Below are positions 32,498 to 52,277 of a stretch of DNA of 64,000 nt, in pieces. The translations under genes and the position numbers were made by a program. Position 1 is the first letter of the stretch, and each line of letters opens with the position of its first letter. The notes beneath the pieces were generated by a model. The model saw only the letters and a list, made by a program, of their open reading frames with translations. It made no database searches and was not told the DNA's origin. Origin of the DNA: Bacillus sp. 491mf (GTDB taxonomy: Bacteria; Bacillota; Bacilli; Bacillales; Bacillaceae_G); contig NZ_FOLV01000013.1 in NCBI RefSeq assembly GCF_900112415.1, positions 46,591 to 110,590 of the forward strand, in the 5' to 3' direction.

Positions 32498-32620
32498 GGA
32501 GCTAACTAAAAAGTCTACTTTTTAGTTAGCTCCTTTCACTTTGAATCGACTACTTGTATGTCGAATATTACCGAAGGGTCTTTATATTGTGTCGAAGCGC
32601 CGATATATTGCAAAGAACGG
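32496..32620 (+). repeat. Repeat family D, copy 2, with terminator hairpin
   Basis: 18-bp arms (32496-32513 with 32518-32535, loop TCTA), starting AAGGAGCTAAC and ending GTTAGCTCCTT, overlap the deacetylase stop codon and must act as its terminator. Next come GAATCGACTACTTGTATGTC, GAATATT, GGGTCTTTAT and GTGTCGAAGCGCCGATATATT. The same order occurs at 58.0 kb and, reversed, at 36.6 kb. Confidence 0.75.
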
Positions 32621-32935: not shown

Positions 32936-32940
32936 AAAAA

Positions 32941-33190
32941 GGTGACTTCTATCACTGCCAATAACCCGCCACTTACCCGCTGATGCGGTTTGAAGTGGAG
33001 GCTTGCAAAGGCCTTTGTTGACTACCCTCAGTCTTTCGCGAACTACGTTGGTTTGGTCATGACACCTGTGGATACTCCTCAAGTCCGCAGCCCTGTCGTC
33101 TATGGTTAAAAGCTCTGATGGGTAGGAGCGGTGCTGTAGACCTAACAAGCCTTTCCAACATTGGGTATGAGGCACACACTCCAAAAAAGG
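32941..33190 (+). ncRNA. Omega (HEARO-like) guide RNA region of IscB
   Basis: The position is directly upstream of iscB, running up to its ribosome site. Local stems: CCACTT / AAGTGG (32969-32974 with 32993-32998) enclosing CCGC-TGAT-GCGG. GTCTA / TAGAC (33098-33102 with 33137-33141) encloses GCTC / GAGC. IscB elements carry such an RNA here, with the guide at its 5' end reading into the flank. The identification rests on position, base composition and stems, not on a covariance-model match. Confidence 0.62.
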
Positions 33191-33201
33191 AGGTATACGT
33201 T

Positions 33202-34451
33202 TTGTTCGTATACGTAAGAAACAAACACGATGAACCTGTCATGCCATGTTCGCCAAGAAAAGCAAGGCGCTTATTACAGGAACGAAAAGCAAAGGTAATC
33301 AAACGAACACCATTTACCATTCAATTACTCTATGGGAGCAGTGGATACAAACAATCTGTTTCCTTAGGAATTGACGCAGGAACAAAACACATTGGTGTTT
33401 CTGCGCCAACAGAACAAAAGGTTCTATTCGAAGCAAATGTACAGCTTCGTACCGATATCCAAGAATTACTGACGACTCGTTCCCAGTTTCGAAAAGCGAG
33501 AAGAAACCGTACAACACGCTACCGAAAGGCAAGGTTTTTAAACCGTAAGAAACCAAAAGGTTGGTTAGCCCCTTCGGTACAACATAAAGTCAATTCTCAT
33601 CTCAAAATCGTAAGCCTTGTACATGACATCCTTCCTGTTACCAAACTAACAGTGGAAGTTGCTCAATTTGACACACAACTGCTGAAAAACCCCGATATTC
33701 AAGGAGAGCAATATCAACAAGGCGAACAAATGGGGTTTTAGAACACTAGAGAATACTAGAGAATATGTCTTGTTTCGCGATCGTCACACGTGTCAGCGCT
33801 GTAAAGGAAAGAAGAAAGACAAAATCCTTAATGTGCATCACATTGAAAGTCGGAAAACAGGCGGAGATCGTCCTGATAATTTGATTACACTGTGCGAAAC
33901 GTGTCATAATGAAATTCATCGAAAAGGATTAGAACATACCATTAAGCGGAAAAGCAAATCATTGCGAGATGCCTCTCAGATGACCGTGATGCGATGGTTT
34001 ATCTATAACGGAATCAAAGAAATCTATCCCCATGCCCAGTTGACATACGGATATCTCACGAAGCATACACGCATCACACATCGTCGATGCGCGATGCGTG
34101 AGTGGTTATCCAGTAGCGAAACCTATTGATGCAGTGTATCTCATGAAATTCGTTCGCAAGAACAACCGTCAGTTGTATAAAGCAACGATTGGGAAAGGCG
34201 GGAAGCGCAAATCGAATAAGGCAGAACGATACGTAAAAGGGTTTCAGCTATTTGACAAAGTGGTCTACGAAGGGCAAGAGTGCTTTATTTTCGGAAGACG
34301 AAAAACAGGGTATTTTGACTTAAGACTGTTAGACGGAAGCAAAATTCATGCGTCCGCAAGTGTAAAAAAATTGAAACGAGTCGAATATACCGATACTTTA
34401 CTCATCGAAAGGAGAGAAAGCGATTCGTCCCCGACTTACGCTTTCGCTTAG
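33202..34451 (+). pseudogene. iscB: iscB, RNA-guided nuclease (Cas9 ancestor), broken
   Basis: The start is TTG 33202 with AAGGAGG 8 nt upstream. PLMP-type motif PVMPCSPRKARRLL, RuvC-I SLGIDAGTKHIGVSA, Arg-rich bridge helix RSQFRKARRNRTTRYRKARF, and RuvC-II KLTVEVAQFD. HNH is NVHHIESRKTGGDRPDNL with the C-x2-C pairs CQRC and CETC, then RuvC-III region TYGYLTKHTRIT and the C-terminal target-interaction domain (KGFQLFDKV, LLDGSKIHASAS). Lesions: TAG at 33739-33741 where Trp is expected, a 10-bp tandem duplication (ACTAGAGAAT twice, 33745-33764), and about 2 nt missing near 34086 in the RuvC-III His-Arg-Ile-Asp-Ala motif. The three readable pieces end at 33741, 34129 and 34451. Intact length would be about 415 residues. 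Confidence 0.85.
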
Positions 34452-34460
34452 AAGTCGGGG
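34429..34460 (+). repeat. Right-end hairpin of the IscB element
   Basis: 9-bp arms CCCCGACTT and AAGTCGGGG around a loop that contains the iscB stop codon. This is the subterminal palindrome expected at an IS200/IS605-type right end. Confidence 0.7.
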
Positions 34461-34475
34461 TCTCCTCGCCGAAAT

Positions 34476-35669
34476 ATGATGAACTCTAAACAAAGTATTA
34501 CAAAGCATTTGCAAATATTAACAGAAATCTTTCTCGTCTCCACGAAACTTGGGCTTACTTCCTTTGGAGGACCTGTTGCACATCTTGGCTATTTTCATAA
34601 CGAATACGTCCAAAAGCGAAAATGGATAGATGAAAGAAGCTACGCTGATTTGGTAGCTCTTTGCCAATTTCTTCCTGGTCCTGCTAGCAGTCAAGTTGGA
34701 ATCGGAATTGGGTTATCACGAGGCGGTATACTTGGAGCGATTGTTTCTTGGCTTGGATTTACGCTCCCTTCTGTTCTTGCGCTCGTCCTGTTTGCTTCAT
34801 TACTACAGCAGATCGATATTGCACACGCAGGATGGATTCACGGCCTAAAGCTAGTAGCCGTAGCGATTGTCGCTCATGCATTATGGGGAATGGCACAAAA
34901 GCTAACCCCAGACCGGAACCGCGTAACGATTGCAGTCATCGCCGCGGCTACCGTTCTATTATTCCAAACAGTTTGGATACAAATCATTGTGATTCTATGC
35001 GCAGGCATCGTTGGCTGGCTCTTATACAGAGAGCACACAATCACGGCTAAAACAGAAATATCGATTTCTATCTCTCGTAAAGTCGCAGCGCTATGCCTAT
35101 CTTTATTTTTTCTCTTATTCATACTATTACCGATATTACGCCCTTTCTCGCACTGGATTGCTATGTTTGATAGTTTCTATCGCTCTGGTTCTCTCGTCTT
35201 TGGCGGCGGTCATGTCGTTCTTCCGCTCTTAGAAAATGAATTTGTGTCAAACGGCTATATAACGAAAGAACAATTTCTCGCTGGCTATGGAATGACGCAA
35301 GCTGTGCCCGGACCATTATTTACATTTGCCGCTTATATCGGGGCTATTATGAACGGCGCCGCCGGGGCAACGATTGCGACAATCGCCATTTTCCTTCCTG
35401 CCTTCTTACTTGTTGTCGGCGTATTGCCATTTTGGGATGCGCTGCGCCGCAAACCGTACATACAAGGAGCTATGTTTGGAATAAATGCAGCGGTTGTCGG
35501 CATTTTACTCGCCGCTTTCTATCATCCCATTTGGACAAGCACGGTTATGCAGCCAGCTGATTTCATTGTCGCATTACTCTTATTTACGATGCTTTCCTTT
35601 TGGAAAATGCCGCCGTGGATCATTGTGATAATTGGTGCAATCAGCGGGATGATTTTGTCGGTACTATAA
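34476..35669 (+). CDS. chrA: Chromate transporter ChrA (two CHR domains)
   Basis: 397 residues, about ten to twelve membrane helices. It has two CHR halves: LTSFGGPVAHLGYF...CQFLPGPASSQV in the first, GSLVFGGGHVVLPLLENEFV...MTQAVPGPLFTFAAYIG in the second. It exports chromate (or related oxyanions) at the inner membrane. The start ATGATG lies 15 nt after the IscB right-end hairpin. The bases before it (TCTCCTCGCCGAAAT) contain no Shine-Dalgarno, so the insertion has probably cut the gene from its own leader. Confidence 0.88.
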   Translation: MMNSKQSITKHLQILTEIFLVSTKLGLTSFGGPVAHLGYFHNEYVQKRKWIDERSYADLVALCQFLPGPASSQVGIGIGLSRGGILGAIVSWLGFTLPSVLALVLFASLLQQIDIAHAGWIHGLKLVAVAIVAHALWGMAQKLTPDRNRVTIAVIAAATVLLFQTVWIQIIVILCAGIVGWLLYREHTITAKTEISISISRKVAALCLSLFFLLFILLPILRPFSHWIAMFDSFYRSGSLVFGGGHVVLPLLENEFVSNGYITKEQFLAGYGMTQAVPGPLFTFAAYIGAIMNGAAGATIATIAIFLPAFLLVVGVLPFWDALRRKPYIQGAMFGINAAVVGILLAAFYHPIWTSTVMQPADFIVALLLFTMLSFWKMPPWIIVIIGAISGMILSVL

Positions 35670-36529: not shown

Positions 36530-36705
36530 CCAAATATATCAGCGCTTTTCGCAATATATCGGCGCAAATGATACATTTATCAGCGCTTTTTCAAATATAT
36601 CGGCGCTTCGACACGATTTAAAGACCCTTCGACAACGTTCGACACACGAATCGTCCATTCGCTGGAGCTGAATCAAAAGTAGACTTTTTGGTCAGCTCTA
36701 TTTCT
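36530..36705 (-). repeat. Repeat family D, copy 3 (reverse, with extra units)
   Basis: Three spaced copies of ATATATCGGCGC or TATCAGCGCTTTT (36535-36610), then GGCGCTTCGACACGATT, AAAGACCCTTCGAC, and finally GAGCTGAATCAAAAGTAGAC, TTTTTGGTCAGCTC as the hairpin end. It lies between the DUF4129 gene and chbG. Confidence 0.65.
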
Positions 36706-51949: not shown

Positions 51950-51977
51950 ACATAAAGACATTGTTATGTAAAGCCGA

Positions 51978-52072
51978 CAACTTCCCTCCGCTGGTACGAA
52001 CCAGATCAGGTCCAAAGGGTTAAGAAGCTTCAACACGCTTCTCTCTCAGCCCAGCTCTACGGGCACCCCCAG
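51978..52072 (-). promoter_or_regulatory. TPP riboswitch (THI element) of thiC
   Basis: On the minus strand: GGGGGTGCCCGTAGAGC, GGGCTGAGAGAGAAGC, ACCCTTTGGACCTGATCTGG, TTCGTACCAGCGGAGGGAAG. The CUGAGA and GCGnAGGGAAG core blocks and the CCTGATCTGG helix are intact. Thiamine pyrophosphate binding should favour the downstream terminator. Confidence 0.97.
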
Positions 52073-52277
52073 TTTATCACTGATTAAATTTTTACTACGC
52101 ACCTATCATACATCATTGTCTAAAAAATGCAAAGATATTTACAATTTTTCTTTTCACTCAAAAAATAGTTATTTCACTTAGTACAAGCCGAATCCGCACT
52201 TCATACATATGTAGTATAAGCCGGTGTAGGACTATGTTCTGCAAGGACACTTCACTATAAGAACAGGAGTGAAAGAG

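What the first reader, a model, noticed from the sequence alone, without database searches (positions are those of the whole stretch)
32938..34475. Decayed IscB (Cas9-ancestor) element with omega-RNA region in a B. cereus-like chromosome
All IscB landmarks are readable: PVMPCSPRKAR start, three RuvC parts, Arg-rich bridge helix, HNH with two Cys pairs, C-terminal target domain, and an IS200/IS605-type right-end hairpin that swallows the stop codon. A structured non-coding block lies upstream where the guide RNA is expected. There is no tnpA, so the unit is a stand-alone IscB/omega-RNA cassette. Recent decay makes it useful for tracing loss of RNA-guided homing.
Basis: partly seen in the sequence, partly recalled or inferred. 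Interest (0 to 1): 0.75.

Follow-up and report, generated by a model that had tools for sequence, protein, structure and literature searches.

The report
Broken IscB element at a start codon
The stretch is a decayed copy of a known mobile element (an IscB nuclease gene with its guide RNA) that lies between a gene's apparent ribosome-binding site and its start codon; many of its relatives do the same and may carry a spare ribosome-binding site in their right end.

Summary
The finding is real. A HEARO/omega-RNA (RF02033, 114.9 bits) and broken iscB pieces (the first over the NF040563 cut-off) form one 1,522-bp element, 32957-34478. The protein frame is broken at least twice; the RNA and the right-end hairpin are still recognisable. 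As an object it is a new member of a known kind.

Its position was not in the finding. It lies between an apparent Shine-Dalgarno (SD) sequence and the start codon of an open chromate-transporter gene (ATG at 34479), so its guide would be that gene's leader. The junction is a called start codon in 13 of 25 ATGA-type elements (background 21 of 558 sites) and in 8 of 18 of a second set (60 of 1,734). Two Exiguobacterium sites have uninterrupted counterparts. The window's own empty site was not seen: no genome of its species was reached.

The right end has an SD-like motif just before a hairpin in 32 of 39 elements (5.9% of control windows). I propose that it hands a replacement SD across the hairpin to the host start codon. 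Solo right ends before rpiB in 8 genomes and a decayed element before tsaD support this; predicted SD accessibility is mixed. The mechanism is inferred, not shown.

The parts
32939..32945 (+). AAGGTGA, apparent SD of the chrA leader, now on the far side of the element
   Evidence: sequence; scored as a 6-nt SD match when the flanks are joined in a script
32941..32956 (+). inferred 16-nt guide of the omega-RNA (host leader)
   Evidence: the 16 bases left of the HEARO start; flank varies among copies; 16-nt guide length from PMC9640706 (passages)
32957..34478 (+). whole IscB/HEARO element, 1,522 bp
   Evidence: ends set by comparison with relatives; the window's own empty site was not seen
32957..33179 (+). 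HEARO / omega-RNA scaffold
   Evidence: RF02033, 114.9 bits
33202..33741 (+). iscB piece 1 (likely TTG start), ends in a stop
   Evidence: PF14239 and NF040563; start by eye
33770..34129 (+). iscB piece 2, HNH, another frame
   Evidence: PF01844 and NF040563 positions 189-301
34098..34451 (+). iscB piece 3, C-terminal part, third frame
   Evidence: no family hit; resembles C-termini of relatives by eye
34408..34414 (+). AAAGGAG, SD-like motif of the right end
34420..34469 (+). right-end two-tier hairpin
   Evidence: fold; hairpin finder
34479..35669 (+). chrA, chromate transporter; its ATG is the junction
   Evidence: open frame (34476-35669); TIGR00937, 417 bits, cut-off 171.7

Best explanation
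A once mobile IscB/HEARO element inserted directly 5' of the start codon of chrA. (1) Shown: it is an IscB/omega-RNA element whose nuclease frame is broken. (2) Shown for two relatives by uninterrupted sites and read from the sequence in the window: the junction lies between SD and ATGAA, with no target duplication at the two tested sites, so that the guide is host leader and the target-adjacent motif is the start codon. (3) Inferred: with an intact nuclease the RNP would cut a chromosome copy lacking the element at leader+ATGAA, and repair would copy the element back; the guide could be transcribed from the host gene's promoter because the element lies in a leader. (4) Inferred, moderately supported: the right end is a portable translation-start module. 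Its SD-like AAAGGAG lies just before a hairpin and the host start codon just after it, so the folded hairpin brings both to an effective spacing of about 11 nt and the downstream gene stays translated. (5) In the window the nuclease has decayed while RNA, hairpin, SD-like motif and the chrA frame remain.
For: Identity. Position: 13 of 25 set-1 ATGA junctions are called starts against 21 of 558 background sites (p 2.5e-11), non-coding sites only 13 of 23 against 21 of 149 (p 2.4e-5); set 2: 8 of 18 against 60 of 1,734 (p 1.1e-7), non-coding 8 of 15 against 60 of 266 (p 0.012). Uninterrupted sites: L252 equals the joined flanks of L120 over 90 of 90 bases; L277 aligns to those of L117 without a gap. 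Host SD moved away in 20 of 21 start-type insertions, no SD left beside the ATG in 20 of 21. Module: SD-like match before the hairpin in 32 of 39 against 321 of 5,462 control windows; spacing across the hairpin 11.5, SD 3.4, n 32; motif read in three iscB frames; solo right ends before rpiB in 8 genomes with AAAGGAGG unchanged; element with decayed iscB before tsaD; lone right end before annotated rocF. Precedent: T4 genes 38 and 25 (PMC3014915, passage). IsrB target-adjacent motifs NTGA, NTG, NTGG (PMC9581776, passages).
Against: Predicted SD accessibility is mixed: mean 0.46, over 0.5 in 10 of 27, window 0.26. 12 of 25 and 10 of 18 junctions are not called starts. 7 of 39 elements lack the motif by the finder, two of them (L127, L128) because the hairpin was misplaced; 6 more set-1 elements had no hairpin by the finder. 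In the GTGA branch a start lies 8-10 nt past the junction in 8 of 25, too far for the module. The window's empty site is unseen. No promoter signal above chance. No experiment.
Confidence: 0.68

Rival explanations
1. Ordinary dead IscB element. The start-codon position is a by-product of the ATGA target motif plus selection against insertions inside genes; the downstream gene is weakened, silenced or expressed by other means.
For: ATGA is itself a common start context; in set 2 the excess over non-coding sites is modest (p 0.012); about half of the junctions are not starts.
Against: Excess over non-coding sites in both sets; an insertion between SD and ATG should harm the gene, yet chrA and tsaD frames are open.
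Confidence: 0.3
2. The SD-like motif before the hairpin is a transposition or DNA-folding signal, not a ribosome-binding site.
For: Hairpin ends are typical of IS200/IS605 (recalled). The motif is found in start and non-start elements alike and is complementary to the TTCCT loop strand.
Against: The loop strand is kept in L019 (TTCCT) and nearly so in L114 (TTCCC), which lack the motif. It does not by itself explain why the motif is unchanged in the solo right ends before rpiB. Both roles may hold.
Confidence: 0.35
3. The downstream gene is translated by coupling from iscB, whose stop lies close to the junction, not through an SD across the hairpin.
For: The iscB-like frame ends 19-34 nt before the junction in many elements; in L017 and L114 its stop overlaps the host ATG.
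Against: In the window, L023 and L128 iscB is broken far upstream, and the solo right ends before rpiB in L300 and its kin have no iscB beside them by a crude motif test.
Confidence: 0.25

Closest known systems
IscB / omega-RNA (OMEGA) elements: HEARO RNA RF02033, NF040563
   Same: RNA scaffold upstream of iscB, PLMP/RRXRR N-terminus, HNH, guide from the left flank, hairpin right end
   Different: The window copy is broken; its placement before a start codon and the SD-like motif in its right end were not seen described in the papers searched
IsrB with measured NTGA / NTG / NTGG target-adjacent motifs (PMC9581776, passages)
   Same: Motif compatible with ATGA beside the target
   Different: IsrB lacks HNH; the passages seen do not speak of start codons as insertion sites, and the SD they mention is that of isrB itself
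T4 genes 38 and 25: SD and AUG brought together by RNA structure (PMC3014915, passage)
   Same: SD and start codon separated by a hairpin, working spacing 5 and 11 nt after folding
   Different: There a gene's own leader, tested by mutation; here a mobile element's end, proposed to serve whatever gene it lands before, untested

Membership tests
HEARO / omega-RNA (RF02033) | covariance-model match over the gathering score | tested here: met
   114.9 bits against 83, model 1-211
IscB | IscB profile over the curated cut-off | tested here: met
   piece 1 alone 243 bits against 175; piece 2 93.9 bits, under it as a fragment
IscB | HNH domain | tested here: met
   PF01844 42.5 bits against 21.4, piece 2
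IscB | one open reading frame with all three RuvC parts | tested here: not met
   three frames, a stop at 33739-33741: a pseudogene copy
IscB | RNA-guided cleavage beside a target-adjacent motif | not testable with these tools
   needs biochemistry
IS200/IS605-type element | hairpin right end and scarless insertion | tested here: met
   hairpin; no duplication at two relatives' sites; not seen for the window itself
IS200/IS605-type element | Y1 transposase TnpA | tested here: not met
   no such frame inside the 1,522-bp element; elsewhere in the host not searched, no genome held

The most novel reading that the evidence does not exclude
IscB/HEARO elements of this branch are start-codon specialists. 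Their target-adjacent motif is the start codon (ATGA/ATGG), their guide is the host leader, and their right end is a portable translation-initiation module (SD, hairpin, spacer) that replaces the SD they displace. Such an element can sit before a gene, even an essential one, use its promoter for the guide RNA and keep it translated; solo right ends can then stay as permanent leaders, as before rpiB.
Probability: 0.5. Interest if true: 0.82.

Novelty: new member of a known kind. Interest (0 to 1): 0.6.

Why it matters
The element itself is ordinary. The positional rule, if it holds in a large survey, would explain why target-adjacent motifs of these relatives of Cas9's ancestors look like start codons, how a guide taken from flanking DNA gets transcribed, and how an element between SD and ATG is tolerated. 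The right end would be a natural module that carries a ribosome-binding site across a hairpin, and a simple reporter can test it.

Tried and rejected
Host genome: none held. Relatives of a Bacillus sp. genome gave chrA-like DNA in 41 of 60, 66% at best over most of the gene; two searches of the order, 397 genomes each and largely the same set, gave one match at E<=1e-100, 69%. So the window's own empty site is unseen and the B. cereus label unverified. Phage records: one match, 9% of the query. That chrA is simply silenced is not favoured, since its frame is open, but not excluded. A promoter scan gave 3 sites against 4.4 expected by chance. A first hairpin finder was too strict (15 of 73 loci) and was loosened after I had looked at the sequences and before the start-codon test (19 of 73).

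Limits of the counts. Of 96 HEARO loci tabulated, 55 got a right end; 3 repeats of one site and 2 with other junction letters (L085, L121) were dropped, leaving 25 ATGA and 25 GTGA. Nineteen of the 55 right ends were set by patterns typed after looking at the sequences, so set 1 is not blind. Set 2: 79 loci, 6 left out as already used, 73 examined, 19 with a right end, one (L177) dropped for want of a left end; the left end of L205 is doubtful. L183, called 3 bases off, was not counted as a start. Starts come from my own simple gene caller, which weighs SD, for elements and background alike, so the SD counts are not independent of it. On plasmid pSC2 the record annotates another start, downstream of my junction for L023. 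Pairing of the outer stem is partly by construction. Related elements are not independent events.

Full report
What is there. The window holds one IscB/omega-RNA element at 32957-34478. The RNA matches Rfam HEARO over the whole model (114.9 bits, gathering score 83). The coding part lies in three pieces in three frames. Piece 1 hits RRXRR and the IscB equivalog model over its cut-off; piece 2 hits HNH and a later part of the IscB model; piece 3 has no family hit but resembles the C-termini of relatives by eye. PDB chains matched by piece 1 are mostly IscB.

Where it sits. Right of the element comes ATGAAC, the start of an open chromate-transporter gene (TIGR00937, 417 bits). Left of it ends AAGGTGACTTCTATCACT, which looks like an SD and leader. 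In related loci the left end falls, in nearly all, on GTCAA-like letters at the first base of HEARO with varying flanks, and the right end stops before ATGA or, in another branch, GTGA. Joined in a script, the window's flanks give a 6-nt SD match 11 nt before the ATG. Nine of 11 chrA homologues have a start with an SD match near the same N-terminus. The window's species was not among the genomes reached, so this empty site is inferred, not seen.

Is it a rule? In set 1 (25 unique ATGA-type elements from genomes, plasmids and viral contigs, the window included) the junction is a called start codon in 13; among 558 other ATGAA sites in the same flanks it is 21 (p 2.5e-11); against non-coding sites only, 13 of 23 to 21 of 149 (p 2.4e-5). 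In set 2 (73 further viral-contig loci; 19 with a right end by rule, 18 with both ends) it is 8 of 18 against 60 of 1,734 ATG[AG] sites (p 1.1e-7), non-coding only 8 of 15 against 60 of 266 (p 0.012); with a longer minimum gene length 7 of 18 against 45 of 1,734 (p 3.3e-7), non-coding 7 of 17 against 45 of 348 (p 0.005). For two Exiguobacterium sites the uninterrupted sequence exists in other genomes: L252 is identical to the joined flanks of L120 over 90 of 90 bases, and L277 aligns without a gap to those of L117. No target duplication is seen at either.

What happens to the host gene? In 20 of 21 start-type insertions (13 of set 1, 8 of set 2) the host SD lies on the far side of the element, and in 20 of 21 no SD match is left beside the ATG. 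Of 12 non-start junctions none has a host SD; since the caller weighs SD, this is not independent. One element, with a longest iscB-like frame of 83 codons, lies before tsaD (450 bits, cut-off 296). The search found that sequence at one place only in its genome, G341, and uninterrupted in 36 of the 39 other genomes searched. TsaD is essential in B. subtilis (recalled).

The right end. In 39 of 45 elements a finder recognised the hairpin (20 of 26 in set 1, 19 of 19 in set 2). In 32 of these 39 an SD-like match of 5 nt or more stands within 18 nt before the hairpin foot, against 321 of 5,462 control windows in the same elements (5.9%). Counted across the hairpin, GGAG lies 11.5 nt (standard deviation 3.4, n 32) before the ATG. 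The motif appears in three iscB reading frames: ERR, KEV/QEV, EGG (one search read). In T4 genes 38 and 25 a structure between SD and AUG reduces the spacing to 5 and 11 nt, and mutations that weaken it reduce translation initiation (PMC3014915, passage).

Solo right ends. A search with one right end found copies in 22 of 150 genomes, with a cap on matches scored per genome. Of 30 loci read, 24 lack the iscB C-terminal motif in the 300 bases before, by a crude test. Of 25 loci examined for rpiB, 8, from 8 genomes, have the right end (79-94% identity) directly before rpiB, with AAAGGAGG unchanged in all 8 and the hairpin kept in spite of changes; rpiB was confirmed by profile in one, L300 (TIGR01120, 189 bits, cut-off 139), and in the others by its first residues. 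On a plasmid a lone right end stands before annotated rocF.

Against it. Predicted SD accessibility is mixed (mean 0.46, over 0.5 in 10 of 27, window 0.26). Seven of 39 lack the motif by the finder: L127 and L128, where the hairpin was misplaced and AAAGGAG is visible, and L019, L114, L185, L194 and L226. The motif could pair with the loop strand or serve transposition. About half of the junctions are not starts. The GTGA branch differs (8 of 25 with a start 8-10 nt on), and there the module would lie too far away. Coupling from iscB is a live alternative where iscB is intact.

Known or new. IscB, HEARO and their mobility are known. Measured IsrB motifs are NTGA, NTG and NTGG (PMC9581776, passages), and OgeuIscB's NNRR (PMC9640706, passages) admits ATGA. 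The IsrB paper notes an SD in the last omega-RNA hairpin, that of isrB itself (passage), which is not the one meant here. HEARO's preference for ATGA/GTGA sites is recalled from the 2009 description; the copy I asked for is not held. Ten searches listed no paper that I recognised as describing start codons as IscB insertion sites or an SD in the right end; each listed at most 20 papers, of which I read passages of six. Most subscription journals are not in the library, so this is weak evidence of absence.

Verdict. The object is a new, decayed member of a known kind. The positional rule is supported by two sets of limited size; the translation module is a hypothesis with natural cases in its favour and no experiment.

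Noticed in passing
window 32499-32619 and 36584-36698: A pair of inverted repeats (77 nt at 81% and 35 nt at 86%) flanks the stretch with the element and chrA at about 4 kb distance.
   Followed up: no
window 51966-52080 (-): TPP riboswitch, RF00059, 73.4 bits.
   Followed up: no
   Followed up: partly
L289-L293, L295, L298, L311-L313, L315: Eleven loci share another upstream sequence joined to the same right end, followed by ATGATGAA; perhaps a short element that shares the right end.
   Followed up: partly
L300-L303, L316-L318, L321: Solo right ends directly before rpiB in eight genomes.
   Followed up: yes
L194 2985-3942 and 8760-8834; L147 702-765; L148 627-1841: Viral contigs with HEARO near other structured RNAs: ROOL, tRNA and RAGATH-18 in L194, RAGATH-18 in L147, two group I introns in L148.
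   Followed up: no
L017 and L114 junctions: The iscB-like stop codon overlaps the host ATG (TGATG and ATGA), a layout known from translational coupling.
   Followed up: no
G314:C1:3311072-3311271 (in L104): A second, weak HEARO-like match (37.2 bits, under the cut-off) directly behind a full one.
   Followed up: no
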